Shown here piece by piece: positions 30,641 to 63,480 of a stretch of DNA of 64,000 nucleotides; the first letter of the stretch is position 1, and each line of letters starts with the position of its first letter. The notes under the pieces were generated by a model. That model had not been told where the DNA came from. It searched no databases and saw nothing but the letters and a program-made list of their open reading frames with translations. This stretch comes from Auricularia sp. M13 (taxonomy: Eukaryota > Basidiomycota > Agaricomycetes > Auriculariales > Auriculariaceae), in the NCBI GenBank assembly GCA_037042915.1, contig CM073196.1, forward strand, positions 1,178,001 to 1,242,000, given 5' to 3'. The position numbers were made by a program, and so were the translations under genes.

Positions 30641-33600
30641 GAGAATGTGGAACAGCGGGCAGAAAGTAGGATATAAGTATAAGAGGATAATCCGGGCTCA
30701 CCGATGCAGGCTGAGCAGTCGATCGACGGCGAGCAGGACGACGTGGACGCAGCCTAGATCTCGAAGCAAGCTCGCGAACTTGGTGCTGCTGTGGAAATGG
30801 GTAATGAGGGTGTAATGTGCTTGATGAGGATAATCTGGACACAGCAGTGCAGTCTGAGCCGACGGCGACGAGCAGGACAGCTTGGTGCCACCCAGACCGC
30901 AGAGCATCCTCGATAACACGCCACAGCTGTCAATAACACATAGTGAGCGCGGATTCCTCGCAAGGAGGGTAATATGGGCGTACCGTTCCGGTTCAAGCCG
31001 CCGGCGATGAGCACAACGAGAAAGACACGGCGCTGCCTAGATCGCAGAGCGCTACAGCGGTATTAGCAGAGGGTTGGCGCATTATGCTGGCAATCAGGAA
31101 AAGGCGACAAGCAGGACGATCCGGGGGTCGCCCAGATCGCAGGGCATCGTAGGCTTCGAATGACAAGCGAGCGGTGAGTTCGCCATCCGCCCGATGAGGA
31201 TAGTGTGAGGGTACCGGTGCAGTCTGAGCTTCAGGCGACGGGAAGAACGCCCTGAGTGTTCCTGCGCGCCCGCCGACGACAGCGAGCTGGAAAAGCCACG
31301 TCCTGCAGGCCATCCGCATGTGCTTCGAGATCCTCGAGCTCATGGCCCCGTGACGCAGAGCTGCGCTGAGAACGTGGGATTCCTATCATGCAGAGAGGTG
31401 AGCAGGCTATTCACGTAAGAAGCATACTCCTGGCGTACCGATGTAACAGGAGCCAGCGAAAACAAGCACAACGACGTGGGCGTCGCCCAGAACGCAGATT
31501 GTGGTCGATAACGAGAGGCTGCTACCGCGGGGAGCAGGGAGCAGTGAGCGTGCTATCCGCGCAATGAGGATAAGCTGTCTTCACCATAAGGATTGGTTGG
31601 GCGTATCGAAAGAAGTCGAGGCGGCGGCGACGGGTAGACCAACCGCAGCGTCGCCCAAATCGCATAGCGTGGTGGAGAACGAGGGGGGCTGCCGTCGCAA
31701 CGGAGGTTCAGCATACTACCAGCGAAAGCAGCATAAGCCGGACCTATCGATGGGGTCGACGCCGGCGGCGACGCCAGAGCGACCGGGTCTTCGCCCACAG
31801 GGCAGAGCATCGTCCAGAACGTGCGGGCGCTGCCGCAGCCAACAGTGAGCACATTATGCGCGTAATGAGCATAATCCGGACTTGCCGATGGGGTCAGTAA
31901 CGGCGGCGACGATCAGAACAACCTCGGCTGTCGCGCAGAACGCAGAGATTCGTTGAGAACACGGGGCTACTGTCGCAACGGACCGTCAGCACGATAACCG
32001 CAGCAACCGATGGGGTCTGTGGCGGCGGCGGCGCGCACCTGGGTAGCGCCCAGATCATAGAGCTTCGCGGACGACGTGGTACCCTGTCAGCAAACGCAGT
32101 GAGCACAGTATGCGCGCAATGAGAATAAGTGGGGCTTACCGACGGTGTCTGTGACCGCGGCGATGTGCAAGGACGTCCCGGGCGTCACCTAGATCGCAGG
32201 GCTTCGTCGAGACCACGGGGCTACTGTCGCAAAGGACGGTCAGATCATTATCGGTGCGGTGAGCATAAGGCGGACTTACCGGTGGCTCTGTAACGGCGGT
32301 GACACGCAGAACGACGTGGGGGTCGCCTGGTTTGTAGATTAATCTCGTGAAGGAGCCGCTGTTGCTGAACCGGGCAGTTAGTGCATGATGCTCGCGGTAA
32401 AGACAACGCGGGCTTACCGATAAAGTCTGTGACGGCAGGGGCGACGCGCAGAACGACCTGGGCGTTGCCCATACCGCCGAACATCGTCAGCAACGTGCGG
32501 CTACCGTCGCAGACAGCAGTGAGCACAGTACCCGCGCACTGAAAATACCTGGGACGTACCGAGGATGTCTGTGATGGTGGCGACGCGCAGAACGACGTGG
32601 GCGTCTCGCAGATGGCAGAGATTCCTCGAGAACGCGGGGCTGCTGCCGCAAAGGACGGTCAGAACATTATCGGCGCAATGAGCTTAAGGCGGCCTTACCG
32701 GTGGCTCTGTGACGGCGGTGACGCGCAGAATGACCTGGGCGTCGCCCAGACCGGAGAGCGTCGTCGAGGATCTGGGGCTGCATTCGCGGCGAGTAGTGAG
32801 CGGGATATCTTCACTATGAGGACTAATCGGGCGTACCGATGCTACCCAAGACGGCAGCGACGGGTAGGCTAACCGCGGCGTCACAAAGGTCACAGAGCTT
32901 GGAGAACTAGGGGCTGCCGTCGCAATGGAGGTTCAACATATGACCAGCATAAGCAGCATAAGCCGGACGTACCAATAGGGCCGACGGCGGCAGCGACGGG
33001 CGGACGACCGGGGCGTCGCCCACAACGCAGAATCGTCCAGAACGTGCGGCCACTGCCGTGGCCAGCAATGAGCACATTATGCACGCAGTGAGCATAATGC
33101 GGACTTACCGACGGTGTCTGTGACGGCGGCGATGCGCAGGACGTCCCGGGCATCACTTAGATCGCAAAGCTTCGTCGAGAACACGGGGCTGTTGTCGCAA
33201 AGGACGTCAGAATATTATCGGCGCAACGAGCATAAGACGGCCTTACCGGTGGCTCTGTGACTGCGACGACGCGCAGAACGACGTCAGCGTCGCAGAGACC
33301 GCAGAGCTTCGTCGAGAACGCGGGGTTGCTGACGCAACGGACAGTCAGCACGAAGCCCGGAGCAGAAGTCAGGCACGGGCTTACCGAGGCTGTCTGTGAC
33401 GGCGGCGACGCACAGAGCGACGTGGGGGTCGCAGATTTATCTCGTGAAGCTGCTGCTGCTGCTGTACCGGGCAGTTAGTGCATTATCCTCGCGATAAGCA
33501 CAACGCGGGCTTACCGATAGAGTCTGTGACGGCGGCGACGCACAGAGCGACGTGGGGGTCGCAGATTGATCTCGTGAAGCTGCTGCTGTTGCTGTACCGG

Positions 33601-34620
33601 GCAGTTAGTGCATTATCGTCGCGATAAAGACAACGCGATCTTACCGATAGAGTCTGTGACGGCGGCGACGCGCAGTACGACCTGAGCGTTGCCCAGACCG
33701 CCGAACATCGTCTGAACGCGTGCGTCTGCCGTTGCGGCCAGCAGTGAGTACATTATCCGCGCTATGAGAATACCTGGGACGTACCGAGGCTGTCTGTGAC
33801 GGCGGCGACGCGCAGAACGACGTGGGGGTCGCAGATTAATCTCGTGAAGCTGCTGCTGTTGCTGTACCGGGCAGTTAGTGCATTATCGTCGCGATAAAGA
33901 CAACGCGATCTTACCGATAGAGTCTGTGACGGCGGCGACGCGCAGTACGACCTGAGCGTTGCCCAGACCGCCGAACATCGTCTGGAACGTGCGTCTGCCG
34001 TTGCGGCCAGCAGTGAGTACATTATCCGCGCTATGAGAATACCTGGGACGTACCGAGGCTGTCTGTGACGGCGGCGACGCACAGAGCGACGTGGGGGTCG
34101 CAGATTTATCTCGTGAAGCTGCTGCTGCTGCTGTACCGGGCAGTTAGTGCATTATCCTCGCGATAAGCACCACGCGGGCTTACCGATAGTCTGTGACGGC
34201 GGCGACGCGCAGGACGACCTGAGCGTTGCCCAGACCGCCGAACATCGTCTGGAACGTGCGTCTGCCGTTGCGGCCAGCAGTGAGTACATTATCCGCGCTA
34301 TGAGAATACCTGGGACGTACCGAGGCTGTCTGTGACGGCGGCGACGCGCAGAACGACCTGGGCGTCGCCCAGATCGCAGAGCTTCGCCGAGAACGCGGGG
34401 CTGCTCTCGCAAAGGACGCTCAGCACGATACCCGCAGCATGGAGCACGCCTGGGCTTACCGTGCGGCGCCCATGAGCGTCGACGAGCTGTAACCGGTGGC
34501 CGGTGGCCGCTGATCAATGCCGCTCTGCTGCGAGCGCCCACTCTTCGCTGGACCTGCACTGTACATCGGCGCCGGTGAGCACAGGAGCCGCGAGCACAGA
34601 AGGCTTACCGCTCTCTCCTG
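30641..34620 (-). repeat. Exon-intron tandem array, block 1 (about 26 units)
   Basis: Units of about 130-140 bp follow each other head to tail. On the minus strand each unit ends an exon at (ATC/CTC)G before GTAAG or GTACG. The intron is about 50 nt with CACTAAC or ACTCACTG as branch site and a CAG acceptor; the next exon follows. Exons encode variants of LCDLGDAHVVLRVAAVTD. Common exon lengths are 74, 80 and 83 nt. Units near 33.4-34.4 kb are almost identical; those near 30.7-31.6 kb are strongly diverged (for example STKFASLLRDLGCVHVVLLA). No full-length frame is maintained across units. Confidence 0.8.
32567..33460 (-). repeat. Segment of block 1 nearly identical to 62241-63134
   Basis: Corresponding landmarks are offset by a constant 29,674 bases over about 0.9 kb with few differences. 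This shows recent copying between array blocks 1 and 4. Confidence 0.85.
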
Positions 34621-35310
34621 CGCAGCGGCCATCGCACGCACGGCCGCCAGCGACCGCCTGTGACCGGTGCTGGGGCCGCATGGACGCCGGGTACGCGTTG
34701 CCGGTGATGCAAGCTGTCAGGACGTCCCCGTTCCGCGCCGCTCACGGGCGCAGTGTGCGCCTCGTCGTCGACCACGGGTCCGCAGCGGCGCCGGCGCGAC
34801 TGGGCGCGATCAGAGCCAGTTAGATGCTCTGGACAATGGTTCAGCTCAGTCGGGCGCAGCGCGTAGAGCAGCGTACGCACAGTCTGGTCCAGGGGCCCGA
34901 TGGCTCATCGATCCGCCGTCGTATCGTCAAGGCTCGAGCCTGGCAGCATGAGCCAGCTCAGAGCCTGGTCGGATCTCGGATACGCGTGACCGGCGCTTCC
35001 CGGTTGCTTCCAGTTCCACGAGCGCGAGCGCCCACCCTCTGCGCAGGGGGAAAAATCCTGCTTCCTCCTCCCCATTTCTCGCCATCCCACTGCACTTTTG
35101 CCCGACAGTCTGCGGGCTCCGTTGCATTTCCTCGCTCACGCTCGCTGGGCCCCGCCGTCTCGTGGCCTCCATCCACTTCGGCTCGCCCCGGACTCAACCG
35201 CGATAATTGCGCAGCGTGACCTCAGCGTCCGCCGCGATAGGAAATCGCACCTCCGTCCCCATTTAGTTTAGATAGCCTTGCAGGGCTCATGCAGGGTCGC
35301 GATCCGTGCA
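34440..35310 (-). repeat. 5' module of the arrays, copy 1
   Basis: The module lies at the high-coordinate end of array block 1 and recurs at 42640, 50360 and 63450. On the minus strand it has a donor at 34605 (GTAAGCC), an acceptor at about 34562 and a further donor before the first array unit near 34457. It therefore looks like the 5' exons of the array gene. One frame reads AMAAAQERA then VQVQRRVGARSRAALISGHR. No start codon or domain can be fixed. Copies 1 and 3 match to about 35310/51228. Confidence 0.7.
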
Positions 35311-35719
35311 ATTTGTCACCTCACTGGGATCTACACATCGTGTTTCTCAATGGAGTACCCCTCACGTGTACACCCCCAGGGCGATGGCTCTTCCGCGCTG
35401 CGTTTCTCAGCATCTCTATCGCTTTCATACAATCTCCCGTCGTCGACCCAGTTGATCCCCTTGTCATTTATCCCGCTCATCATCATGTTGCCTTCGCTTT
35501 CTTTTCGCCCGCCTCCCCCGTCATTTTGTTATTCCCCCTTGTCAGTCATTAGCTAATACAATATCTGCACTTTTTACTATATTCAGCGGTCACACATTAG
35601 ACACAGGCTGCGGGGCTCTCGACGACATGAGTTACGCGACTCGATTCGCAAATCGGCATTCTGATATGCCTCTGATGAATATCAGATTGGACATGCGACA
35701 CGCACGGACGTGACCTACC
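35311..35719. other. Stretch without a supported gene
   Basis: T/C-rich sequence on the plus strand with short open frames only; nothing is recognised. Confidence 0.3.
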
Positions 35720-36470
35720 TCAGGCCAGGGGGTTCGTTTCGTTGCGGGATTTTGACTTGAGATAGTAGTTGCTGATGCCGTCCTCGATGCAGAACATATT
35801 GCTGACCCAATCGTTGTATGCGTTATGTTTGCGAATCCAGTGGATGCCAAGTATAAGATCAATCTGACCCGGCATGTCCGCGACAGCAGTAGCGACGACG
35901 TCTTGTATCAGACCGTTGAAGTCGACAGTGAACCGGACCTCCGAAAGTGTGCAAGCAGTGCCAGCGACGGGAGACGCAAGATATGGGTATCGCTGTACCA
36001 CAGCTCCGACGCGCTGTGCTGCAGGTAGCGAGATGAAGTTCTGCACTTGGAACGTGTCTGGGCAGACAGACAATGGTTGGCCGCCCGCGGTCGCCCAGTA
36101 TGTGACGGTATCCAGGAAATCGACTCTCGCGATGACGCCCTCCGCATCTGGGGTGAGTTGATGGCGATCCTCGTCCGGCGAAGATACGCATGATGTAGGC
36201 AACATCTCGTCGTGGTCGATGTCGGCGACATCGGAAGGAGATCCCGTTGCCGCAGCCGAAATCGGGGAGACGGCGCGCGCGCGAAGCAGACAGGGTACAG
36301 GGGGAGTGGCTGACCTGGTATGAAGAAAATCCCAGGTCTGCGAGACGGCACCAGCCTCGGGTGAATGTACCAAGGATATCGACGCCGGCTCGGCGGCGGG
36401 CGAAAGACCAGGGTCTGGCATTGATCTTGGCGAACCAACACCTTGAGATTATTCCCAAGGGACAACTTGG
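35720..36470 (-). mobile_element. Ty3/gypsy-type retrotransposon fragment (retropepsin region)
   Basis: A fossil fragment of an LTR retrotransposon. The minus strand carries a retropepsin-like end (IDLILGIHWIRKHNAYNDW, compare the family motif LGMDWLRxHN) preceded by a low-complexity part. No reverse transcriptase, integrase or LTR is seen nearby, so it is a lone, incomplete piece. Age cannot be judged without LTRs. Confidence 0.6.
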
Positions 36471-36476
36471 CAAGGC

Positions 36477-37081
36477 TCACGCTAAAATTTGCTTGGGGAC
36501 ACCAACGACATCCGAGGCGATCGTTCCCTTCGTAGACTGCGCATCGGTATGAGCTGCGCGTCATTTTCAGGTTACAGCGAGAGAAGCATAATCACCTGAA
36601 CAGGTGCTAGATGTAGCGTCTTCGCCCAACGAGCACGCCGCGCGCGGTGTAATCTTTTGGCGGCATTTTTGAGGTATCGCTTTAGGATGGCCTTGATGTG
36701 CCAGTCGTCGCTGTAAGCAGGCAACTGGACGAAGATCCTCCGAGCCTACAGTACGTCAGTCACTTAGAAACAAGACGATGTTCTCTCTCACTTTGTTGCA
36801 TATATACCGGATGGCTGCCGGCGATTGCTGAGCGTAAGGCAGGCCGCGATCCAAGTAGTCGAACGCTGAGCGGTGCACAAACTCCTAGAGACGGTAAGTG
36901 AGGGGAAAGACAGGTGGAAGTACGCACCAGGACATTTGCATACGTTTCATCCTTCCAACCAAGCGTTGAGCGCAGTGCCCTGCTTCCCAGCAGCGCCTTC
37001 GATAAGCCGCGAGGTTTGGGAATGACTGACTGAGATGATACTCAGTTTTACACATGTTGAGGGCGCAACACGTACGTTCAT
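36477..37081 (-). CDS. Orphan DDWHIK-family protein 1
   Basis: Five exons (37081-37076, 37029-36928, 36884-36792, 36745-36596, 36536-36477) give 136 residues. The first coding exon is just ATGAAC. The protein opens MNSVIPKPRGLSKALLGSRA, then ETYANVLEFVHRSAFDYLDR, then ARRIFVQLPAYSDDWHIKAI. The basic stretch RYLKNAAKRLHRARRARW follows. All splice sites are good and the frame closes exactly. A paralogue with the same arrangement lies at 55014-55476. Positively charged and helical; function unknown. The retropepsin fragment begins just beyond its 3' end. Confidence 0.75.
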
Positions 37082-37171
37082 TAGAAGTAGGAGTCAAAGG
37101 TTCGAGAGCGGGACGAGCTGCGCAGGAATGAGACCAGCTGAATCGTTTGGCTGGGTATTTATGATCTGGGA

Positions 37172-37808
37172 ATGAGCCGAACTGTCACACGTTCGCTGTG
37201 ACACAGCACCCGCGGGTTTGCGTGGTTGCGAGACCGGCAAATGGTCCGACATCTCCGAGCCCGCTGCAACCATTTTCAGTTACTTCTCGCCGTCGCGCAC
37301 GCTCGCCGCTTGCTGATGCTGCCCTGCGTGCACTTGCGCGTGATTGTGGACTCGACATTGCGACCCTTTCGCTCGATCAAATCCGTTCGTCGCTCATATT
37401 TAATGTGTTGCATCTGCTTCAGCACGGCCGGCCTGTCGCAACCTCAGAGGGCTCTTCCCGCAAGCTCGCCATGGAACTTCTGCGTGCAATAATAGATTCA
37501 TGTGTAAGCAATAATTGCCCACTGCATCACTCGTGCTTATATGTCAGGGGCTTGGTCTTATTATTCCCGATGCAAATGGCGTCTACACCCGCCGCTCTGC
37601 GCTCTCCGCTCTTCGTTGCTTCCTTCCTGGCGACGATGCCTGTTCCCAGGTGCCAATCCCCACAACTGCTGGAAGAAGCGCGCTCCATGATGATCCTAAC
37701 ACCACGTACTTGGAGGACTTCGACGTTGTTCAGCCGCCCGCAGGCTGCAGCGGTGTCACAGGAATTCAATGCTCCAAATGTATTATTGTACTTATAAAGT
37801 TTATATAG
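37172..37808 (+). CDS. Unknown protein, 5' end uncertain
   Basis: Two firm exons: one ending at 37503 (probably starting near 37280 after a TTTTCAG acceptor) and 37548-37808. They read LARDCGLDIATLSLDQIRSS, then MELLRAIIDS, then CGLGLIIPDANGVYTRRSAL and LRCFLPGDDACSQVPIPTTA. The junction is frame-keeping. The start is unresolved; an ATG at 37172 would need a weak donor. No domain is recognised. Confidence 0.45.
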
Positions 37809-37920
37809 GCTCGCTATCCATTCTTCAATCACGCAGTCTGATTAAAAACAAGGTCTTTGACGGACATTGGCCCGATGCAGATATTAAACACGAGCGACCC
37901 AGTCGTCTGCAACGGCTTTG

Positions 37921-38640: not shown

Positions 38641-38739
38641 TGTTTTCTGAGGCCGACCGACGATTGGATGTGCTTATAAGGGAGTGACGACCCAAGTGAT
38701 GCTGACAAATATTGTCTGGCACTCGCAATCAGTCACAAT

Positions 38740-41120: not shown

Positions 41121-42670
41121 AGCGGTGTTCATGTCAAGCGGCAGCGGCAGGGATCATAGAACCATCGGATGCCCGATGCGTGCGCCTCGTTTCATGTGGC
41201 CGGCGAAAGGCCCTGGGCGGTAAACAAATCGCAGACAATGTAGTATTCCTGTCGCAGCCAGCAGTGAGCACATTATCCGCGCAATGAGGATAGGTTGTAG
41301 CTACCGATATGGTCTGAGCCGGCGGCGACGCGCAGAACAACGCGGGCGTCTCGCAGATGGCAGAGATTCGTCGAGAACACGGAGCTGCTGCCGAAGCGGA
41401 CAGTCAGCACGAAGCCCGGAGCAGAAGTCAGGCACGGGCTTACCGAGGCTGTCTGTGACGGCGGCGACGCACAGAGCGACGCGGGGATCGCAGATTGATC
41501 TCGTGAAGCTGCTGCTGTTGCTGTACCGGGTAGTTAGTGCATTATCCTCGCGATAAAGACAACGCGGGCTTACCGATAGAGTCTGTGACGGCGGCGACGC
41601 GCAGTACGACCTGAGCGTTGCCCAGACCGCCGAACATCGTCTGGAGCGTGCGTCTGCCGTTGCGGCCAGCAGTGAGTACATTATCCGCGCTATGAGAATA
41701 CCTGGGACGTACCGAGGCTGTCTGTGACGGCGGCGACGCGCAGAACGACGTGGGGGTCGCAGATTAATCTCGTGACGCTGCTGGTGCTGCTGTACCGGGT
41801 AGTTAGTGCATTATCGTCGCGATAAAGACAACGCGGTCTTACCGATAGAGTCTGTGACGGCGGCGACGCGCAGTACGACCTGAGCGTTGCCCAGACCGCC
41901 GAACATCGTCTGGAACGTGCGTCTGCCGTTGCGGCCAGCAGTGAGTACATTATCCGCGCTATGAGAATACCTGGGACGTACCGAGGCTGTCTGTGACGGC
42001 GGCGACGCGCAGAACGACGTGGGCGTCGCAGATTAATCTCGTGAAGCTGCTGCTGCTGCTGTACCGGGCAGTTAGTGCATTATCCTCGCGATAAGCACAA
42101 CGCGGGCTTACCGATAGAGTCTGTGACGGCGGCGACGCGCAGTACGACCTGAGCGTTGCCCAGACCGCCGAACATCGTCTGGAACGTGCGTCTGCCGTTG
42201 CGGCCAGCAGTGAGTACATTATCCGCGCTATGAGAATACCTGGAACGTACCGAGGCTGTCTGTGACGGCGGCGACGCGCAGAACGACGTGGGGGTCGCAG
42301 ATTAATCTCGTGAAGCTGCTGGTGCTGCTGTACCGGGTAGTTAGTGCATTATCGTCGCGATAAAGACAACGCGATCTTACCGATAGAGTCTGTGACGGCG
42401 GCGACGCGCAGTACGACCTGAGCGTTGCCCAGACCGCCGAACATCGTCTGGAACGTGCGTCTGCCGTTGCGGCCAGCAGTGAGTACATTATCCGCGCTAT
42501 GAGAATACCTGGGACGTACCGAGGCTGTCTGTGACGGCGGCGACGCGCAGAACGACCTGGGCGTCGCCCAGATCGCAGAGCTTCGCCGAGAACGCGGGGC
42601 TGCTCTCGCAAAGGACGCTCAGCACGATACCCGCAGCATGGAGCACGCCTGGGCTTACCGTGCGGCGCCC
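41120..42670 (-). repeat. Exon-intron tandem array, block 2 (about 12 units)
   Basis: Same units as block 1, mainly two alternating types. One has an exon reading RTFQTMFGGLGNAQVVLRVA (80 nt); the other reads SSSFTRLICDPHVVLRVAAV (74 nt). Introns are about 50-56 nt. Neighbouring pairs at 41.6-42.5 kb are almost identical, showing recent two-unit expansion. The low-coordinate end is diverged. Confidence 0.8.
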
Positions 42671-43137
42671 ATGAGCGTCGACGAGCTGTAACCGGTGGCC
42701 GGTGGCCGCTGATCAATGCCGCTCTGCTGCGAGCGCCCACTCTTCGCTGGACCTGCACTGTACATCGGCGCCGGTGAGCACAGGAGCCGCGAGCACAGAA
42801 GGCTTACCGCTCTCTCCTGCGCAGCGGCCATCGCACGCACGGCCGCCAGCGACCGCCTGTGACCGGTGCTGGGGCCGCATGGACGCCGGGTACGCGTTGC
42901 CGGTGATGCAAGCTGTCAGGACGTCCCCGTTCCGCGCCGCTCACGGCGCAGTGTGCGCCTCGTCGTCGACCACGGGTCCGCAGCGGCGCCGGCGCGACTG
43001 GGCGCGATCAGAGCCAGTTAGATGCTCTGGACAATGGTTCAGCTCAGTCGGGCGCAGCGCGTAGAGCAGCGTACGCACAGTCTAGTCCAGGGGCCCGATG
43101 GTTCATCGATCCGCCGTCGTATCGTCAAGGCTCGACA
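42640..43137 (-). repeat. 5' module of the arrays, copy 2 (shorter)
   Basis: Offset by 8,199 bases from copy 1 and nearly identical, but similarity stops at about 43137. The sequence beyond it differs from copies 1 and 3. Confidence 0.75.
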
Positions 43138-47570: not shown

Positions 47571-50390
47571 TTTCATAACAGGTAGACGCTGCCCTCCTTT
47601 AGCGATGAGCGCTCGATTTCTATCAGAACGCGCGGTGAGCGCGCCAACCTCGTAATTAGGATGATGTAGGCGAACCAAGGCATGTAGAGCGGAAGGCGGC
47701 GAAGATGACGACCTGAGCATCTCTCGGAGCATCCTCGCAAACCTTGAGCCGCTATCTTGTCCGGAAGTGAGCGCGCTATGCACGCAAAAAGGAACATGTG
47801 GGCGTACCGATGTATTTTAGGCCAGCAGCAACGGCGGAAACAACCTTGGCGTAGCCCAGATTGCTGAGCATCCGCGCGAAAGAGCTGCTGCTGTCCTTAC
47901 ACGAAGTGAGCGCTCAAGTTGCGTGATAAATAATCCGAGGCGCACGAACGCATGCAGAGGTGGCGAGCAGGACAAACCGAGCGTTACCCTGGATACGTCG
48001 AGAACGTGCGACCGCTGTCGCCGCAGGTAATGAGCGTACCACTTCTCGCGACATGGACCACGCGGGCTCTCAATAGCAGGCTGAGCGGGCGACGGCACAG
48101 GCCGACGACGGCGCCGCCCATATTAGAACATGACATCGAACGTATTGCTGCCTTCGGAACGGGCAATGAGTGGGCTGGGGTCGTAATGAGGAGATGCTGG
48201 CCGTACCCATGCAGTCTGAGCCGACGACAGCAAGCGGCACGACCTGGGCGTCGCTCAGAAAGCAGAACTTCGTCTAGAACAAGTGATTACTGTCGGTGCG
48301 AGCAGTGAGCATGCGATCATGGCAATAAGGATGGTGCGGGGCGTACAGATGCAGACCGAGCCTGTGGCGATGGGCAGGACGATGTGAGCGTCGCGTGAAG
48401 ATTAGAATATTCGCTGGAAAGTGCTGTTGCTGTCGTAGCGGGCAGTGGGTGCGTCACCCTGAAAATAGAAGATAATCTGCACGCGCGCGTACGCATGCAC
48501 TCAGAGCGAGGAAACACCTGGTCGTCACCCCAGAACGCAGACCTTTGGCGACGACGTGGGGCTGGAGTCACGGCGAGCAGTGAGCACGATGTCCTCTGAG
48601 AAAGACAATGTATACCAATGTGGTCTGTACCGGCGGGTGTCATCTAGATCGCAGAGCTTCTTCGAGAACACGGGGCTGCTGTCGCAACGGACAGTCAGCA
48701 CGACACCCGCAGCAGAAGGCACAGCTGGGCTTACCGACGCGGTATGTGACGGCGGCGACGCGTAGAACGACGTGGGCGTCGCGCAGAACGTAGACCTTGG
48801 TCGACGACGAGGGGCTGCTACCGCGGGGCGGGGAGCAGTGAGCGTGCTATCCTCGCAATGAGGATAAGCCGGGAGTACCAATGCGACGTGCGACCGCGGC
48901 GACGCGCAGAACACCCCGGAGGTCGTCCAGAACAGAGAGCTTCGTCGAGGGGCAGGGGCTGCAGTTGCGGCGAGTAGTGAGCGGGCTATCTTCACCATGA
49001 AGACTAGGCGTACAGATGTTACCCGAGGCAGCAGCGACGGGTAGGCTAACGGCGGCGTCACCCAGGTCGCAGAGCTGAGAGAACGAAGGGGCTGCCGTCG
49101 CAATGGAGGTTCAGCACATGACCAGCATAAGCAGCATAAGCGGGACATACCAATGGGGCCGATGGCGGCGGCGAAGCGCGGACGACCGGGGCGCCGCCGA
49201 GACCGCCGAACACGAACATCGTCTGGAACGTGCGTCTGCCGTTGCGGCCAGCAGTGAGTACATTATCCGCGCTATGAGAATACCTGGGACGTACCGAGGC
49301 TGTCTGTGACGGCGGCGACGCGCAGAACGACGTGGGGGTCGCAGATTAATCTCGTGAAGCTGCTGCTGTTGCTGTACCGGGCAGTTAGTGCATTATCGTC
49401 GCGATAAAGACAACGCGATCTTACCGATAGAGTCTGTGACGGCGGCGACGCGCAGTACGACCTGAGCGTTGCCCAGGCCGCCGAACATCGTCTGGAACGT
49501 GCGTCTGCCGTTGCGGCCAGCAGTGAGTACATTATCCGCGCTATGAGAATACCTGGGACGTACCGAGGCTGTCTGTGACGGCGGCGACGCGCAGAACGAC
49601 CTGGGCGTCGCCCAGATCGCAGAGCTTCGCCGAGAACGCGGGGCTGCTGTCGCAAAGGACGCTCAGCACGATACCCGGAGCAGAAGTCAGGCACGGGCTT
49701 ACCGAGGCTGTCTGTGACGGCGGCGACGCACAGAGCGACGTGGGGGTCGCAGATTTATCTCGTGAAGCTGCTGCTGCTGCTGTACCGGGCAGTTAGTGCA
49801 TTATCCTCGCGATAAGCACCACGCGGGCTTACCGATAGTCTGTGACGGCAGCGACGCGCAGGACGACCTGAGCGTTGCCCAGACCGCCGAACATCGTCTG
49901 GAACGTGCGTCTGCCGTTGCGGCCAGCAGTGAGTACATTATCCGCGCTATGAGAATACCTGGGACGTACCGAGGCTGTCTGTGACGGCGGCGACGCGCAG
50001 AACGACGTGGGGGTCGCAGATTAATCTCGTGAAGCTGCTGGTGCTGCTGTACCGGGTAGTTAGTGCATTATCGTCGCGATAAAGACAACGCGGTCTTACC
50101 GATAGAGTCTGTGACGGCGGCGACGCGCAGTACGACCTGAGCGTTGCCCAGACCGCCGAACATCGTCTGGAACGTGCGTCTGCCGTTGCGGCCAGCAGTG
50201 AGTACATTATCCGCGCTATGAGAATACCTGGGACGTACCGAGGCTGTCTGTGACGGCGGCGACGCGCAGAACGACCTGGGCGTCGCCCAGATCGCAGAGC
50301 TTCGCCGAGAACGCGGGGCTGCTGTCGCAAAGGACGCTCAGCACGATACCCGCAGCATGGAGCACGCCTGGGCTTACCGTGCGGCGCCCA
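47571..50390 (-). repeat. Exon-intron tandem array, block 3 (about 20 units)
   Basis: Same architecture as block 1. Units below 48.6 kb are strongly diverged (for example one containing SGSRFARMLREM), those from 49.2 to 50.3 kb are near-identical to blocks 1 and 2, and intermediate units are mixed. Donor positions on the plus strand appear as CTTACCG or CGTACCG about every 135-140 bases. Confidence 0.8.
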
Positions 50391-51228
50391 TGAGCGTCGA
50401 CGAGCTGTAACCGGTGGCCGGTGGCCGCTGATCAATGCCGCTCTGCTGCGAGCGCCCACTCTTCGCTGGACCTGCACTGTACATCGGCGCCGGTGAGCAC
50501 AGGAGCCGCGAGCACAGAAGGCTTACCGCTCTCTCCTGCGCAGCGGCCATCGCACGCACGGCCGCCAGCGACCGCCTGTGACCGGTGCTGGGGCCGCATG
50601 GACGCCGGGTACGCGTTGCCGGTGATGCAAGCTGTCAGGGCGTCCCGTTCCGCGCCGCTCACGGCGCAGTGTGCGCCTCGTCGTCGACCACGGGTCCGCA
50701 GCGGCGCCGGCGCGACTGGGCGCGATCAGAGCCAGTTAGATGCTCTGGACAATGGTTCAGCTCAGTCGGGCGCAGCGCGTAGAGCAGCGTACGCACAGTC
50801 TGGTCCAGGGGCCCGATGGCTCATCGATCCGCCGTCGTATCGTCAAGGCTCGAGCCTGGCAGCATGAGCCAGCTCAGAGCCTGGTCGGATCTCGGATACG
50901 CGTGACCGGCGCTTCCCGGTTGCTTCCAGTTCCACGAGCGCGAGCGCCCACCCTCTGCGCAGGGGGAAAAATCCTGCTTCCTCCTCCCCATTTCTCGCCA
51001 TCCCACTGCACTTTTGCCCGACAGTCTGCGGGCTCCGTTGCATTTCCTCGCTCACGCTCGCTGGGCCCCGCCGTCTCGTGGCCTCCATCCACTTCGGCTC
51101 GCCCCGGACTCACCCGCGATAATTGCGCAGCGTGACCTCAGTGTCCGCCGCGATAGGAAATCGCACCTCCATCCCCACATTCGGTCCAGATAGCCTTGCA
51201 GGGCTCATGCAGGGTCGCGATATATGCA
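50360..51228 (-). repeat. 5' module of the arrays, copy 3
   Basis: Offset by about 15,918 bases from copy 1 and nearly identical over about 0.87 kb, extending as far as copy 1 does. It ends about 220 bases before the RING gene. Confidence 0.75.
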
Positions 51229-54963: not shown

Positions 54964-55013
54964 GAGAAGGAGATTTTCGCCCGCGTCACTCGGTTAGGTT
55001 TTCCGGATCCGTC

Positions 55014-55476: not shown

Positions 55477-55681
55477 TTCACTTTCAGTTGTTAGCAGTGG
55501 TCAAATAGGATGGGATCTATGACTATTACCAAATAATCCATAAATGTGACGTCGCAAGACCGCCGAAATGCAGAAATAGTGCGAAGATCCAGGACCAGAA
55601 CATTCACATGCAGCTCGTTTCGATCTACTGTGCGGGAGATGTCGTAACTCCGGGGAGAAAAGTGAACCGGCCACTTCGACG
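55477..55681. other. Short intergenic region between converging genes
   Basis: The 3' ends of the plus-strand DDWHIK gene and the minus-strand GRGGAGN gene face each other here; nothing else is seen. Confidence 0.4.
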
Positions 55682-57571
55682 TCACAAGCAACGAGTCCGC
55701 GGATGCGCATGCGCGCGGCCGAGGAAGATGGCACCGACCACAGGCACTGTATCGCGCATTGCAACGCAGCGCGGCAGCGATTCGCGCGGCGTATAAGCGT
55801 AACACTGCCGCGCAACGCTTACAATGCGAGGGGATGTCGTGCCCGTACCCGTGCCGGCGAGCGTGGGAGTGGGACCGCGGGAACGGGAGCGGGAGATGTT
55901 GCCTGCGCCGCCGCGGCCGGAGGAGTGCTGTTGGACGAGAGGGTGGGGCGTCAGTAAGTTGTTTAATCGGACGCGAGCGCGGTGGTGTGGGGTGGGAAGG
56001 CGCGGAAGGGAGGGGAGATGGAGAGGATGGCGCGAAGGCCGATTGGGATGGCTCGCGTCGCACTCAGCAGTGTGGACAGCTGGCGCGGAAGAGGATGCGC
56101 GATGATGCTGGGCACGCGAAGGGGGCCACGCAGACGAGTCGAGGCCCGGCACATTCACCAGCGCCATTGTGGCGCTGGTGTGGGCACGAACAAGGCGGTG
56201 AGATGGATGGCGGCGCGCGCGAGGAGAGGAAGACAGGGCGGCACGGTGCAGGTACAGGCACAAAACGAATAGAGGGCTGATGCCATATTGGGACGGCTCG
56301 GCATCGAGTGCCAGCCTGTGTCTCGCGCGACGATGTCCCACGATGGCGCTCGCGCGCAAGCAGGACAGGAGAAGGCGGACCGCAAGCACAAGACACTGAG
56401 CGTGAGTGTGGACGATGTGAACCCCGCTCAGGCCGCAGACAAAGCGGCTGAAGATGCCCACTACTAGCGTCCGCGCGACACTGGGCAAGGCGGTGATACA
56501 ACCACGAGGGCTAGTGATGGATGGATGGAGGAAAGAAGTATGGCTCAAGTCTCGCGGTGTCGTGAGAGCGTTGGCGTGCAGCCAGTGCGCGGTCTCTGTA
56601 CGCTCGCGGAGAGCAGAAGAGGGCAGAAGGAACGGTGCAGGCACAGGCACAAGACGAATAGACTGCGCGATGCCCGGCTCGGGGTCGAGTGCCTGTCGCA
56701 CGCGATGATGGACAATGATGGCGCTCACAGCCAGATACAGTAGAGCGGCGCGCACAAGCTGGATGGGAGAAGACGCGGTGGGCGTCTACGGCAGCGCAGA
56801 CGCACGAAGAGCACAAGGATACGAGTCGCATCAAGCAGACAGTGCGAACGGTGACTCAGAACAAGAGCTGGTCGTTGGGCGATAGTACGCCACGACTGGC
56901 AAGCATGCAGCTGACAACGCTGGTTTGCGGTGCCATGAAAAAAAAGGGCGCAGCAAGATTGCCCAGCAGAGCGTCGAGCCCGTCGTCCGCGGTCGGCACC
57001 GCACGCCATGCCGGCACGCGCTGCTCGGCTTCGGTACGCGAGAGCAATGAACGTAGCGGATGGATGGATGGATGGACAGCCGGGAGATGGGAAGGGAAGT
57101 AGAACGGGCGCACCGGCAACCCCTCCTCCTCATGCAGATGCTGCTCGTGCTCCTTCGCCAGTTCGCGTCGGTCCAGCTCGGGGTCGTGCGATGGGCTGTG
57201 CACGTTGCCTGCGCCGCCGCGGCCCGAATGCGTCACCTATCCAGCAGATCAGAGCGTCAGCGATGATGCGCACGCAGCGTCACAGAAGACCGGCGGGCGA
57301 GGAACAGAACGCACGGTTTGCTTGGGCGGCAGCTCCCTTCCACGCGTGCTCGAAAAGTCGTCGGGCCCATCGAGAGGGCGCGCATCGCCCGAGCCCGAGG
57401 CGGGGCGCATGTTGCCCGCGCCGCCGCGGCCGGTGCTCATCTACTTGCGCCATCCCAGGCGTCAGCATCGTCATCGTCGTCATCGCCAACAGCAGGACGC
57501 ACGACATCGCGGCCGCGCGACTGGGCGCGCTCAGGCTGGGAAGGAAGTGTGGGTGCGGCGTCTGTGCTCAT
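55682..57571 (-). CDS. GRGGAGN-motif protein (DUF3602-like) with a 1.2-kb intron
   Basis: Exons 57571-57506, 57440-57315, 57236-57114 and 55927-55682 give about 186 residues. Three SGRGGAGN motifs mark the family: MSTGRGGAGNMRP, THSGRGGAGNVHS and SSGRGGAGNISRSRSRG, with an acidic linker (ELAKEHEQHLHEEEGLP). Fungal members are small disordered proteins; some are linked to nitrogen/TOR signalling. Intron 3 (57113-55928) is 1186 nt, about 20 times the usual size here, and is filled with diverged repeats of about 390 bp. The last exon may be cut by another intron after TGTTSPRI. Confidence 0.75.
55960..56830. repeat. Diverged tandem repeats of about 390 bp inside an intron
   Basis: At least two copies. 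For example a GGTACAGGCACAAAACGAAT-type anchor at about 56250 recurs at about 56640, each followed by CGATG..GGCTCGG and a GATGGCGCTC anchor. The repeats fill the large intron of the GRGGAGN gene. Confidence 0.6.
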
Positions 57572-58052
57572 TGAGTCAGATAAGAGTTTGGGAATAAGCT
57601 TCGTTTGCGTGTGCAGCGGAGGAAACAGTCCCGGCAGCCGTGAAATTGCAGCGCGTCGACTGCAACGCGGACTTCACGGTGCAGCACTGAATGTGGGCGG
57701 TGTTGACGGGGATACCTCACGGACTCTGCGTGCTTTACGCCCGTCAGGCCTCAGGGACGACATTTATACATATTGGGAATGGTGCGGAGAATTAGGTTCG
57801 TTAACCATCGTACCCCTCCCCGGCGCCTGCTTCTAGAGCGATGACAGTTTCCGGGCGTGGCTTTCTACCTGACGCCGTGGTGCCTTCGGTTCGAGTGCCA
57901 GAAAAGCTTGACTTACAGTCAAGATGGCATCGATCATAAAACCAGGGCCGATTCAACACTTTCACACAGCGCCATTACGGGAAATCCGTTAATTGTGCGT
58001 TGAGGTACATATATACGCGTACAACTGCAGGCAGAGGCGACCATAATAGGCC
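57572..58052. other. Intergenic region
   Basis: No gene is supported between the GRGGAGN start and the 3' end of the MYND gene. Confidence 0.4.
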
Positions 58053-59793
58053 TCAGGACATCGTCGTCGTCGTAGTGGTAAATTTCAGCACTTCCAGTTC
58101 TTTCCGAAGATAGAGAGCGAGCTGCGCGCGCACGTGTTTCTCTAATGGAAGCTCATTGAAACGCCTGATAATGTGAGGTAACTTGGTCGGCTCGCTCCTC
58201 AGAGCGGAATGGAAGTCTTGCAAGAGGTCCATCTCTTTGAGCATGACGGATATGCCTGCGGCTGATTTTCGTTATTTCTCGTCAGGCGATTTGAACAAAA
58301 ATAGGTGACGCACCAGTAGTTGCCTCGTCGTGAGTAACAACTTCATCCAGGAAAAAAAGACGGTGGCTGATCAGGCCAGCGTAGATAACGGATAATTCGT
58401 CGATGTCGAGGCCCATGGACTTGCACGCCAGCTCGAAGTCCCGCGGGTCCATGCTAGGGTGTGCACGAGCAACTATCGGTTTAAGGCGTTTGCAAACCGT
58501 TTTGTGTGGATAAGGCTTGCTGTGCCAGTGTTGCTGTTGACATTCCTTGGAGCAGTATCGAAAGATCTTGCATGAGCCGCAAAGCAAGAGGTGAGCGTTG
58601 TCCTGTGGCTCCTTCATGCAGTCTGCTGCGCTGCAGGTTTTTCGAGACGCGAGAGAATTCAGGAGACGACGAAAGTGCGAGAAGCATCCGCCGTACGCCA
58701 GCTGCTCGTGAAACATGTGGTACACGAGGTCTTCTGGCATGCCGTCAAGCGAATCGTCTCCGAGGGATGTATGTACGTGGAGCGCAAAGCCTCGGAGTTG
58801 GGTTTTGACGGTGACCAGCTCGTCTGGGCAGGCCTGCAGTGCCGAATGCGCGGATGAAAGAATCGCGGCCTCATATCCGTGGAGAAACTGGTGCCAATGC
58901 GGCCATTCGTCGACCGCGAACAGTACTAGGATGTCGAGGACCTGTGCCAGACAGGTTAGACGATGGCCGGGATCTGTGCGACCACAGGGGAGGGGTAGGT
59001 GAGGGCGGCGTAATGCCCCTGCAACCATATCGAGCTGCTTGCATATAGCATGCATAAACATGGATCGAGATGCTTCGTCGACGAACTCGACGTAGAAGGC
59101 TGGGCGGCACCAGAGGAAAGCTCGCATAAACGTGCAGACGACGGCGGTGTCTTCAATGATCGCAAGCCAGTGAAGCAGGCCGCGGAAGCTGCTGGGACTC
59201 TGGATGATGTCGCACGGCGCCGCGGGCCAGATGGCCTGGAATTTGAATTTCCTCGACCGGAGGGAACGATCCAATATCGGTGGGAAACAACTGTTGATGA
59301 TTGAACAGAGCGCCGTGACAAGCTTCTTTGAGCAGTCCGCCACACGAAAACCAACCGCGATGCGACGGTGTAAATTGCCCGACTGGCCAGGGCAGCGCTG
59401 GATGGCGGAATAGTGGGTCTCCGACAGGTCAGAGTTGGTGTCGTCGGCATGATCCACCGTTACAAAGGCCATCATTCGAGACAGCAGACGGGGGTGCTGC
59501 ACGCGCAGCAGCCACACGTTCTCGACAACGACGCGATCGTGCAGGTATATGTGCTCAAGAAGGTGGACACAGACAGCGCAGGCAGCTGCGTCGCGAACGT
59601 TTTGCAAGGCGGCATCAATGCGACACAAAAGATCACCCGCGGCAGCAGAGGAGAGAGTAGGAGTCTATAGGGATGATAAGGCACAATGTCTAACTAGCAA
59701 TCGATAGCGAAAACTTGCCGAAAAGCAGTGATCGCCCACTTCTGACAAGGGGGGGTCGAGGGTGTCAGTGTTAATAGAGAGTGTAGTGGCCAT
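58053..59793 (-). CDS. MYND zinc-finger protein, large
   Basis: Exons 59793-59719, 59664-58314 and 58255-58053 sum to 1629 nt (542 residues). It starts MATTLSINTDTLDPPLSEVG. A long helical region (ARM/HEAT-like, for example LLRVQHPRLLSRMMAFVTVD) precedes a MYND finger near residue 390: CSAADC, CGSC, YCSKECQQQHW, HKTVC. Helices follow (LVIYAGL-like, LKEMDLLQDFHSAL). Large fungal proteins of this layout are common and uncharacterised. The first intron starts GCAAGT, a GC-AG intron demanded by frame. A TATATA box lies at 59851-59856, about 60 bases upstream. Confidence 0.82.
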
Positions 59794-59859
59794 GGTACAA
59801 GAGCGCCTTCAAGAACCGGGTGGGAAAGAATGACTGCGAGAAAGGGGGCTTATATAGGG

Positions 59860-60300
59860 AAACACCTCGTGCATTCCGACAGGTTGGTATTGGGATAAGA
59901 AGTTATCGACGGTTTGGTAGGGTTATGCCGATGAGAGTGCGGCCGCAGAATTGGGGTTATCTCGGCTCTAACCGGCAGCATAATCGCATGTGAAACAGGT
60001 GGCTGGGACTGGCTCAGCGGGCGAGGTGGGAACAGAGAGTTGTCCAATGTCAACGCCGCCCGATGTCTACGGATGGTAGAAGCACTCGGACAACGACTGT
60101 AAGTATGATATCACGCCAATAATCTCTTTAAGTGTACTGGGACTGCGTAGGCGGTTGAGGGAGGAGTAATCGAGGATGGGCTGTGTCGTCGAGAAAGCCG
60201 AAATATCTGAGCAGCTAAAAGGATGAGCACGACATACTTCCAGTAGGATAGGGTCGAGTTTACCTTGGCCAACTGTCATAGAACAAAAGAGGGGACCCTG
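59860..60300. other. Stretch before array block 4
   Basis: No gene is firmly supported. A minus-strand frame down to 60067 (with SSLNRLRSPSTLKEIIGVIS) may be the 3' end of array block 4. Confidence 0.3.
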
Positions 60301-63300
60301 GTTGGGTATCGGAATACTCGCATTACAAAGGGAAAAGCCGGGCGTACCAATGCAGAATGGGGATCGCCAATGAGAAGACGTCGACCGGATTGCAAAGCAT
60401 CCTCGCGAACGGGTTGCTGCTGGTGTCATAACACGCAGCAAGTGGGCTGTCCTCGGAAAGACGATGAGGATCGAGGCAACCTGAAGTGGACGACAGCGAC
60501 CAGTTCGAGCTCGGCTTAAGCTAGAGTCCACTTCGCGAACTTGCGGCCGCTGTCGCCGCAGGCATTAAGCGTCCAATTTTTGAACGAGGAAATGCGGATG
60601 TACGATGGCAGCCTAAGACGGCGACGGCGATTAAAGCTCCTAGGCGTCGCGCAGGTCAAAGAGCACGGTGGAGATCGCAATGCTGCTGTCATAAGGCGCA
60701 GTGAGCGAGCAGTAATGAGCATAGTCCGGAGTTACCAATGTATGCGGTGCCCGCAGCGACGCGCAAAACGACATGAGCGTCGTGCAGAGCGCGGGGTTTA
60801 GTGGAGGACGGGCGGCTGTCTCAGTCAGCAGTGAGCACATTATCGCGAGAATAAAGGCGATCTCGGCGCACCGATGCTACCTGACCAGGCGGCGAGGCGG
60901 AGAACGGCCTAGGCGACACGCAGAACGCAATGCGTCGTCCAGAGCATGCGGTTGAGATTGCAGTCAGCAGTGAGTACATTATGAGCACAACTAGGATCGG
61001 TGGGGCGCAGCGATGAGGTCTGTCACAGTGGCGAGGCGCAGAACGAGCTGGGCATCGCCGAGGTCATAGCCTAGTCGAGAACGTGGGGCTGCCGTCGCAA
61101 TGGACAGTCAGTACATTATCAGCACAAGTAGCATAGTCCAGACTTACCGACGGGGTCTAGGATGGCAGCGACCTGCAGAGAGACCAGGGCGTCGCCCAGA
61201 TCGCGGAGCTTTGTTGAGAAGGCGGGACGTGCGGCGCAACGGACCGTCAGCAAGATACCCGCAGCGCAAGTCACACACGAGCTTACAGATGAAGTCTATG
61301 CCGGCGTCGATGTGAGGACGTCACGGCCATCGCCTAGCTCGCAGCGCATCGTCGAGGACGTTAGGCTGCAGTCAAAGCGGGCAGTGGGCATGATATCCTC
61401 GGAACCAAAACCATCGCGCGTACTGATGTAGTCCGTGCCGGTGGCGACGCGCAAAGCGAGATGGGCGTCGCCCAATAAGCAAGGGACAATCCAAAACGTA
61501 CGGCTGCCGTCACAGCCAACAGTGAGCACAATATCGCCGCAATGAGGACAGGTGGTGCGTACCGATGAGGTACGTGACGGCAGCGATGCACAGAACGACC
61601 TGGGCGACAACTAGGTCGTAGAACTTGGTCGAGAACGCACGCTACCCTGGTTACGGAAGGTCAGCATAGTGCCGGAGCAAGCAGCATAAGCCGGGCTAAC
61701 CGATGCGGTATGTGACGGGGGCGACGCATACAACGATGCGGGCGGCGCCCAGAACGAAGAGTCTGGTCGACGGCGAGAGGCTGCTATCGCGAGGAACAGT
61801 AGCGTCCTACCCTCGCATTGAGCATAAACCGGGAGTACCAATGCGAAGTGCGACCGCAGCGGCGCGCAGAACACCCCGGAGGTCGCCCAGGAACACAGAG
61901 CTTCGTCGAGGATCAGGGGCTGCAGTCACGGCGAGTAGTGAGCGGGCTATCTGCACCATGAGGACTAGTCGGGCGTACCGATGTTACCCGAGGCGGCAGC
62001 GACGAGTAGACTGACGGCGGCGTGGCCCAGATCGCAGATCTTGGAGGAGAACGAGGTTCAGCACATGGCCAGCAAAAGCAGCATAAGCCGGACGTACCGA
62101 TGGGGTCGACGGCGGCGACGACGCGCGGACGACCGGGGCATCGCCCGCATCGCAGAATCGTCCAGGATGTGCGGCCGCTGCGGCAGCCAGCAATGAGCAC
62201 ATTATGCGCGTAATGAGCATAATCCGGGCTTACCGATGGGGTCTGTGATGGTGGCGACGCGCAGAACGACGTGGGCGTCTCGCAGATGGCAGAGATTCCT
62301 CGAGAACGCGGGGCTGCTGCCGCAAAGGACGGTCAGAACATTATCGGCGCAATGAGCTTAAGGCGGCCTTACCGGTGGCTCTGTGACGGCGGTGACGCGC
62401 AGAATGACCTGGGCGTCGCCCAGACCGGAGAGCGTCGTCGAGGATCTGGGGCTGTATTCGCGGCGAGTAGTGAGCGGGATATCTTCACTATGAGGACTAA
62501 TCGGGCGTACCGATGCTACCCAAGGCAGCAGCGACGGGTAGGCTAACCGCGGCGTCACAAAGGTCGCAGAGCTTGGAGAACTAGGGGCTGCCGTCGCAAT
62601 GGAGGTTCAACATATGACCAGCATAAGCAGCATAAGCCGGACGTACCAATAGGGCCGACGGCGGCAGCGACGGGCGGACGACCGGGGCGTCGCCCACAAC
62701 GCAGAATCGTCCAGAACGTGCAGCCACTGCCGTGGCCAGCAATGAGCACATTATGCACGCAGTGAGCATAATGCGGACTTACCGACGGTGTCTGTGACGG
62801 CGGCGATGCGCAGGACGTCCCGGGCATCACTTAGATCGCAAAGCTTCGTCGAGAACACGGGGCTGTTGTCGCAAAGGACGTCAGAACATTATCGGCGCAA
62901 CGAGCATAAGACGGCCTTACCGGTGGCTCTGTGACTGCGACGACGCGCAGAACGACGTCAGCGTCGCAGAGACCGCAGAGCTTCGTCGAGAACGCGGGGT
63001 TGCTGACGCAACGGACAGTCAGCACGAAGCCCGGAGCAGAAGTCAGGCACGGGCTTACCGAGGCTGTCTGTGACGGCGGCGACGCACAGAGCGACGTGGG
63101 GGTCGCAGATTTATCTCGTGAAGCTGCTGCTGTTGCTGTACCGGGCAGTTAGTGCATTATCGTCGCGATAAAGACAACGCGATCTTACCGATAGAGTCTG
63201 TGACGGCGGCGACGCGCAGTACGACCTGAGCGTTGCCCAGACCGCCGAACATCGTCTGGAACGTGCGTCTGCCGTTGCGGCCAGCAGTGAGTACATTATC

Positions 63301-63480
63301 CGCGCTATGAGAATACCTGGGACGTACCGAGGCTGTCTGTGACGGCGGCGACGCGCAGAACGACCTGGGCGTCGCCCAGATCGCAGAGCTTCGCCGAGAA
63401 CGCGGGGCTGCTCTCGCAAAGGACGCTCAGCACGATACCCGCAGCATGGAGCACGCCTGGGCTTACCGTGCGGCGCCCAT
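60300..63480 (-). repeat. Exon-intron tandem array, block 4 (about 24 units)
   Basis: Same architecture and direction as the other blocks. The low-coordinate units are diverged (one reads SNPFARMLCNPVDVFSLAIP) and the high-coordinate units near-identical to block 1. Units between 62.2 and 63.1 kb match 32.6-33.5 kb. Compared with block 1 it lacks about 667 bp, close to five units. Confidence 0.8.
62241..63134 (-). repeat. Segment of block 4 nearly identical to 32567-33460
   Basis: Constant offset of 29,674 bases from block 1 with few substitutions; see the partner entry. Confidence 0.85.

What the first reader, a model, noticed from the sequence alone, without database searches (positions are those of the whole stretch)
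30641..63480. Four tandem arrays of exon-plus-intron units: a gene family built by repeated duplication of one exon
About 80 head-to-tail units of about 136 bp are spread over four blocks, all on the minus strand. The sequence shows a consistent donor (G before GTAAG/GTACG), a CTAAC/CTCAC branch site, a CAG acceptor, introns near 50 nt and exons with the recurring peptide LGDAHVVLRVAAVTD. Spliceosomal signals retained in every unit are not expected of a plain satellite. This could be a giant protein gene, a spliced non-coding RNA, or a decayed gene. I know of no described fungal family that matches.
Basis: partly seen in the sequence, partly recalled or inferred. Interest (0 to 1): 0.93.

Follow-up and report, generated by a model that had tools for sequence, protein, structure and literature searches.

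The report
Fungal arrays of tandem spliced non-coding units
In a fungus-like genome, four neighbouring arrays repeat the same short exon plus intron many times, and as the copies drifted apart the bases that best survived were those needed for cutting the intron out, while no protein seems to have been kept, which points to a spliced non-coding RNA.

Summary
There are 82 units, mostly 130-140 bp, in four minus-strand blocks (23, 21, 11, 27). Most carry a GT donor and a CTNA branch site (68 and 70 of 75 full units). By my intron of 75 introns are 53-59 nt and 55 of 65 exons 77-83 nt. Among 34 dereplicated units the only invariant columns are the branch C and A. In 23 diverged units, 64.5% identical to the proximal consensus, 15 keep all five core splice bases; base-matched columns give 2.6 on average. 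The exons do not look coding: typical length is 2 mod 3, and no frame shows a synonymous excess, although stops are somewhat rare. A leader of about 480 bp is nearly identical in all four blocks. Units next to it are young; distal ones decay (Spearman -0.71 to -0.91). Best explanation: spliced, polymeric non-coding RNA genes that grow at the leader end and are kept spliceable by selection. Transcription was not testable. Cryptococcus CNN00420 is a basidiomycete precedent for exon-plus-intron expansion, so I file this as a new variant of a known kind.

The parts
30653..34491 (-).
34459..34937 (-). Block 1 leader core, nearly identical in all four blocks; shares a further stretch with block 3 up to about 35311
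41207..42690 (-). Block 2 array: 11 units, mostly of the young 139/130 bp types, short compared with the other blocks
42658..43136 (-). Block 2 leader core (approximate upper limit)
47607..50409 (-). Block 3 array: 21 units, young at the 5' end, decayed at the 3' end
50377..50855 (-). Block 3 leader core; shares a further stretch with block 1 up to about 51229
60313..63498 (-).
63466..64000 (-). Block 4 leader, cut by the end of the window
50180..50238 (-). Example intron, 59 nt: GTACGTCC...CTCAC...CAG, branch A 39 nt from the donor (predicted)
50477..50526 (-). Predicted intron of 50 nt in the shared leader (GTAAGCC...CTCAC...TACAG), identical in all four blocks

Best explanation
Each block is a non-coding RNA gene read on the minus strand from a common leader. 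Its pre-RNA is a chain of exons of about 80 nt separated by introns of 53-59 nt, which the spliceosome removes, giving a polymeric exon RNA. Units are added or homogenised next to the leader by unequal crossing-over or gene conversion, also between blocks, and older units drift at the far end. Splicing of the units stays under selection, so donor and branch point persist, and an acceptor is usually at hand, while the exon drifts without regard to frame. Shown from sequence: the units, the signals, the excess conservation of donor and branch, the polarity, the exchange between blocks, and the lack of detectable coding constraint. Inferred: transcription, actual splicing, the mechanism of growth, and a product acting as RNA or through splicing itself (for example making the repeat transcript stable or exportable, or marking the locus).
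For: Branch C and A are the only invariant columns among 34 dereplicated units; donor G, donor T and branch T are among seven nearly invariant ones. In 38 dereplicated units the five core columns average 0.942 conservation against 0.696 elsewhere, and 0 of 100000 base-matched column sets reach that; likewise with 29 units at a 75% cut. In 23 distal units 15 keep all five bases, against a mean of 2.6 and a maximum of 13 in 20000 base-matched sets, and a YAG lies 12-23 nt after branch A in 19 of 23. Between blocks, branch mismatch rates are below the exon and the non-signal intron rates in all 18 alignments tabulated. Alignment-free strict pattern: 16 sense, 0 antisense, 0.37 by shuffling. Non-coding: 63, 108 and 384 of 400 permutations reach the observed synonymous fraction in the three frames; six unspliced array ORFs have no Pfam match near a cut-off. 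Polarity: Spearman -0.91, -0.89, -0.71, -0.88. Exon columns are better conserved than non-signal intron columns after stratifying by base (5 of 5000 permutations). CpG observed/expected is 1.35 proximal and 1.21 distal, no sign of CpG decay.
Against: No RNA data were available, so neither transcription nor splicing is shown. The donor is not unique: 12 of 128 non-signal columns are at least as conserved as donor G and 4 as donor T. In the distal test another shift of the same spacing keeps all five bases in 11 of 23 units, so the margin over the best control is modest. The acceptor columns were left out of the column test, and between blocks the called acceptor mismatches as often as or more often than the average in many alignments (for example 22 of 74; AG 15 of 38), probably through alternative CAGs. 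The full donor hexamer is not better kept than average in many of the alignments. No conserved RNA structure: RNAalifold gave no pairs; an intron hairpin scores 119 of 234 paired cells against 82-114 when slid; an exon hairpin is kept in 140 of 187 cells but with only two doubly changed cells. No Rfam match. Stops are rarer than in shuffles, which leaves some room for translation. The extra exon conservation rests on C and G columns, not on A or T. No relatives were found, so all conservation is within one genome and homologous units are not fully independent.
Confidence: 0.5

Rival explanations
1. A repeat protein gene whose exons are 2 mod 3, so that the reading frame rotates from exon to exon and all three frames must stay open.
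For: The exon consensus has no stop in any frame. Stops in the 65 exons called: 57 observed against 75.5 expected, 0 of 300 dinucleotide shuffles as low; antisense exons (146 against 147.2) and sense introns (164 against 158.3) show no such lack; 32 of 65 exons but 3 of 74 introns have no stop in any frame. Spliced blocks 4, 3, 2, 1 have 37, 42, 23 and 61 stops over three frames against mononucleotide-shuffle means of 45.5, 61.6, 37.9 and 88.0, and blocks 1 and 3 have longest ORFs of 379 and 293 codons against 95th percentiles of 307 and 272.
Against: After dereplication the stop depletion is weak (33 against 40.1, 22 of 300 shuffles as low) and only 12 of 30 exons are free of stops in all frames. 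No synonymous enrichment in any frame; stop-creating changes are not clearly avoided (319, 122 and 28 of 400 permutations as low or lower). Longest ORFs of blocks 2 and 4 (243, 277) lie below their 95th percentiles (271, 284), and these ORFs were not required to have an ATG. Unspliced array ORFs have no Pfam match near a cut-off.
Confidence: 0.13
2. A former protein gene that expanded while it was coding and is now dead; the splice signals are simply its slowest-decaying memory.
For: Distal units are strongly decayed and some have lost the donor or acceptor (6 non-GT donors and 1 missing acceptor listed). A readable peptide recurs in one frame.
Against: If units had diverged while coding, an excess of synonymous change or a codon-position pattern should remain; neither is seen. 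Without selection, branch C and A would not be expected to remain the best kept bases in units about 35% diverged.
Confidence: 0.17
3. A silencing-type locus: inefficiently spliced repeat RNA recruits RNA interference and heterochromatin, as the intron does in fission yeast centromeric dg RNA.
For: Tandem, intron-rich, apparently non-coding unit; removing the dg intron or mutating its splice sites lowers H3K9 dimethylation (PMC5322907, abstract read).
Against: No small RNA or heterochromatin data exist here. CpG is not depleted. The array donors and branch sites look strong by the recalled consensus, not poor.
Confidence: 0.12
4. A plain satellite that happened to capture an intron; the signals are carried along by homogenisation.
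For: Blocks share long nearly identical stretches, so homogenisation or recent copying is active.
Against: Homogenisation does not act on single positions; it would not make donor and branch columns better kept than their neighbours in the diverged units.
Confidence: 0.08

Closest known systems
Cryptococcus CNN00420, introns gained by repeat expansion (PMC2395259, passages read)
   Same: Basidiomycete gene with repeats of about 107 nt that contain exon ends and a full-length intron; copy number varies among strains; introns gained by duplication.
   Different: One annotated gene with a few near-identical introns; here 82 units in four leader-bearing blocks, with no detectable coding constraint and with branch bases as the best conserved positions.
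Mammalian arrays of repeated non-coding exons: SNORD116/IPW-A (PMC4742849, abstract start seen in the listing) and C19MC (PMC7692494, passages read)
   Same: Tandem arrays of repeated non-coding exons and introns.
   Different: There the introns are said to carry snoRNAs or microRNAs (for C19MC the mode of transcription is called debated). Here introns of 53-59 nt give no Rfam match and no supported hairpin.
Fission yeast centromeric dg/dh ncRNA introns (PMC5322907, abstract read)
   Same: An intron in a repeat-derived non-coding RNA matters for function.
   Different: Splicing there is repressed and the effect is heterochromatin; here nearly every unit has its own intron and there is no heterochromatin evidence either way.
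Introner-like elements (recalled, not from a call)
   Same: Many similar introns in one genome.
   Different: Introners insert separately into unrelated genes; here the whole exon+intron unit is repeated head to tail.

Membership tests
Protein-coding repeat gene | Excess of synonymous change in one frame | tested here: not met
   63, 108 and 384 of 400 permutations reach the observed value in frames 0, 1, 2
Protein-coding repeat gene | Frame kept across units (exon length 3n, indels of 3n) | tested here: not met
   65 exons mod 3: 44 are 2, 12 are 1, 9 are 0; in one block 1/block 4 alignment 13 exon indels: nine of 1 nt, two of 2, one of 3, one of 6
Protein-coding repeat gene | Open spliced frame without stops | tested here: inconclusive
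   stops rarer than in shuffles and two of four blocks above the 95th percentile for ORF length; weak after dereplication
Spliceosomal exon-intron repeat array | Donor GT and branch CTNA better conserved than the rest | tested here: met
Spliceosomal exon-intron repeat array | Acceptor AG better conserved than the rest | tested here: inconclusive
   a YAG 12-23 nt after branch A in 19 of 23 distal units against 20% of 12-nt windows in the same units, but the aligned acceptor column is not better kept
Spliceosomal exon-intron repeat array | Introns actually removed | not testable with these tools
   no RNA data held
snoRNA/microRNA host array (SNORD116 or C19MC type) | A known small-RNA family in each intron | tested here: not met
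   no Rfam match for the window at gathering scores or at E up to 1 for w47500-51400; unknown small RNAs are not excluded
Repeat-silencing ncRNA (dg/dh type) | Small RNAs and H3K9 methylation over the repeat | not testable with these tools
   no small RNA or ChIP data
Introner-like elements | Copies inserted separately in unrelated host genes | tested here: inconclusive
   in this window the unit model hits only the arrays and leader edges apart from one 6.6-bit hit at w36349; the rest of the genome is not held
Intron gain by repeat expansion (CNN00420 type) | Tandem unit holding exon ends plus one complete intron | tested here: met
   the feature as described in PMC2395259

The most novel reading that the evidence does not exclude
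A splicing-maintained satellite: a family of repeat arrays whose main long-term selected property is that each unit is spliced, the act of splicing (or the polymeric exon RNA) being the function, with new units added next to a leader so that each array keeps an age-ordered record.
Probability: 0.33. Interest if true: 0.85.

Novelty: new variant of a known kind. Interest (0 to 1): 0.62.

Why it matters
If transcribed and spliced, these loci would be an uncommon natural case in which selection on splicing can be watched apart from selection on protein, at single-base resolution over dozens of drifting copies of one intron. They would make it testable why non-coding repeat RNA carries introns in fungi (stability, export, silencing or escape from it), and show intron multiplication by tandem duplication on a scale well beyond the Cryptococcus example.

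Tried and rejected
Whole-genome search: one search returned an error because no genome is held for this window. Relatives elsewhere: one exact exon-core 24-mer is absent from viral contigs and from the bacterial and archaeal genome set; neither collection is expected to hold this organism, and no protein or profile search of them was made.

Coding readings: spliced ORFs, stop counts, codon positions and synonymous permutations did not support a protein, apart from the partial lack of stops told under the rival. In one search the stretch upstream of the first intron was left empty for block 4 (exon length 0 in the output). Pfam on six unspliced array ORFs gave only a sub-threshold DUF5690 hit (E 0.08-0.25, 10.7-12.3 bits against a cut-off of 25) in three of them. 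A conserved RNA fold: none by RNAalifold; an intron hairpin that looks perfect in some units does not hold across 26 dereplicated introns; the exon hairpin has almost no covariation. Known RNA genes: none. Homologous flanks or a shared downstream exon among blocks: only short matches (13 to 26 nt) between different flanks and no protein match at E 0.05. Mutually exclusive exons (equal exon length mod 3, not 0) were considered because of the 77/80/83 nt lengths; I reject them as the main reading because many distal exons lose that rule.

Rows dropped: two hits under 25 bits of 86; 75 full units came from 83 cut points of the 86 hits; dereplicated sets are 38 or 29 units, 34 with a length filter and 26 of 40 distinct donor-branch stretches, which themselves came from the 66 of 75 introns with A at +39. 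The script ended in an error after 80 rows. The alignment is near-identical only in its first part; beyond it the aligned units may not be true counterparts.
Full report
What is there. A profile of the repeat found 82 units on the minus strand in four blocks: w60377-63465 (23 units), w47607-50376 (21), w41207-42657 (11) and w30724-34458 (27). Tandem Repeats Finder sees the same arrays with periods near 130, 139 and 270 among others. The unit is an intron followed by an exon; by my intron of 75 introns are 53-59 nt and 55 of 65 exons 77-83 nt. The intron has a donor GTAAG or GTACG after G, a branch CTCAC, CTGAC or CTAAC whose A lies 39 nt from the donor in 66 of the 80 rows printed, and usually a CAG or TAG acceptor, often with a second CAG next to it. 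An eRF1 gene in the window (matched for w13815-14414) has, by my own reading, three introns of about 57-90 nt with CTTAC-, CTGAC- or TTCAC-like branch sites, so the array introns fit the organism's grammar in size and branch.

Leader and polarity. Upstream of the first repeat donor all four blocks share a leader whose core of about 480 bp is almost identical. Blocks 1 and 3 share a further stretch of some 370 bp; block 4 is cut by the window end. The leader holds a predicted intron of 50 nt of the same style. The first five units of each block are 95-100% identical to a unit of another block; 23 units have a nearest neighbour below 80% (45% to just under 80%). The rank correlation of position with nearest-neighbour identity is -0.91, -0.89, -0.71 and -0.88 for blocks 4, 3, 2 and 1. 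The first 840 columns of a block 1/block 4 alignment are 98-100% identical per 140 columns, so blocks copy or exchange sequence. Flanks show only short matches. The shared thing is therefore leader plus array. Three of the arrays lie downstream of same-strand ORFs that show no relation to each other; the fourth upstream region is outside the window.

Are the splice signals selected? For donor and branch, yes as far as sequence can tell. In 75 full units GT is present in 68, CTNA in 70, and both in 64. In 38 units dereplicated at 85%, branch C and A are kept in all 38, and the five core columns average 0.942 against 0.696 elsewhere; none of 100000 base-matched column sets reaches this, and the same holds for 29 units at 75%. 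Taken singly, no non-signal column of 128 equals branch C or A, 4 equal or exceed donor T and branch T, and 12 donor G. In the alignment of 34 dereplicated units the only two invariant columns are branch C and A, and donor G, donor T and branch T are among seven nearly invariant ones. Scored against a consensus made from proximal units only, 15 of 23 distal units keep all five bases; base-matched sets keep 2.6 on average and 13 at most in 20000 draws; the best other shift of the same spacing reaches 11 of 23. In all 18 between-block alignments the branch mismatch rate is below both the exon and the non-signal intron rate, whereas the donor hexamer and the called acceptor are in many of them no better than the average. 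For the acceptor, a YAG follows branch A by 12-23 nt in 19 of 23 distal units, against 20% of 12-nt windows in the same units, but the aligned column is not well kept, probably because alternative CAGs are used. Without alignment, the strict intron pattern is found 16 times sense, 0 antisense and 0.37 times by shuffling in the distal stretches; the loose pattern 32, 4 and 9.0; the strict pattern occurs 1 and 4 times on the two strands of the first 28 kb.

Is there a protein? Probably not. Exon lengths are 2 mod 3 in 44 of 65 exons, so splicing would rotate the frame at most units. In one block 1/block 4 alignment 11 of 13 exon indels are of 1 or 2 nt. Synonymous change is not enriched in any frame and codon positions are conserved alike. 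Against this: stops are rarer than expected. Over three frames the spliced blocks 4, 3, 2, 1 have 37, 42, 23 and 61 stops against mononucleotide-shuffle means of 45.5, 61.6, 37.9 and 88.0, and blocks 1 and 3 have longest ORFs of 379 and 293 codons against 95th percentiles of 307 and 272, while blocks 2 and 4 (243, 277) lie below theirs (271, 284). Against dinucleotide shuffles, exons have 57 stops against 75.5, but 33 against 40.1 (22 of 300 as low) after dereplication. Much of the depletion thus seems to come from copies of the same young exons. Six unspliced array ORFs have no Pfam match near a cut-off.

Is there an RNA product with a fold? None was found. RNAalifold predicts no pairs. The intron hairpin reaches 119 of 234 paired cells against 82-114 when slid. 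The exon hairpin GGGCGACGCCC is kept (140 of 187 cells; slid 36-45%) but that helix comes from the consensus, and only two cells are changed on both sides. There is no Rfam match. Exon columns are better kept than non-signal intron columns after stratifying by base (5 of 5000 permutations), an effect of C and G columns; A and T columns do not differ. The exon RNA may be under some constraint of unknown nature.

How it most likely works. Shown: repeated units, signals, selective retention of donor and branch, polarity, copying between blocks, no detectable synonymous constraint. Inferred: transcription from the leader, removal of each intron, a polymeric non-coding exon RNA, growth by unequal crossing-over or conversion near the leader, and a benefit either from that RNA or from splicing itself. 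I put 0.5 on this reading as a whole and would put more on the narrower claim that splicing of the units has been under selection.

What is known. Cryptococcus CNN00420 has repeats holding exon ends and a whole intron, with intron gain by repeat expansion (PMC2395259, passages read). Mammalian arrays such as SNORD116/IPW-A (abstract start in the listing) and C19MC (PMC7692494, passages read) have repeated non-coding exons, but small RNAs in their introns. The intron of fission yeast centromeric dg RNA promotes heterochromatin (PMC5322907, abstract read). I saw no description of this family in the listed results of the searches; those lists are capped, and subscription papers and preprints are not held. 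The case is best filed as a new variant of a known kind.

Limits. No eukaryote collection could be searched, and no RNA data exist here. All conservation is within one genome, among homologous units.

Noticed in passing
w43514-45490 (-): 658-codon ORF with an internal tandem repeat of about 354 bp (w44341-45368, 94% matches), no Pfam family; it lies upstream of block 2.
   Followed up: partly
w51445-52326 (-) and w35720-36448 (-): ORFs just upstream of blocks 3 and 1: a 293-codon ORF with a weak RING-like match (PF14634, below cut-off) and a 242-codon ORF without Pfam match. Three of the four arrays sit downstream of same-strand ORFs; the fourth upstream region is outside the window.
   Followed up: partly
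w55682-57236 (-): Two stretches matching DUF3602 (PF12223), one above and one below the Pfam cut-off, in a stretch where the minus strand is pyrimidine-rich.
   Followed up: no
w58282-59664 (-) and w9440-10096 (-): Two MYND-finger ORFs, the second just below the Pfam cut-off.
   Followed up: no
w47607-49290, w60377-62390, w30724-32500 (-): Distal array sequence is pyrimidine-rich on the sense strand (T:A 1.50, C:G 1.29), more than proximal units (1.15, 1.20) or the other parts measured.
   Followed up: partly
w30351-30392 (-): An intron-like site with the same 39-nt donor-branch spacing lies beyond the recognisable units of block 1, followed by unrelated sequence; possibly a terminal exon.
   Followed up: partly
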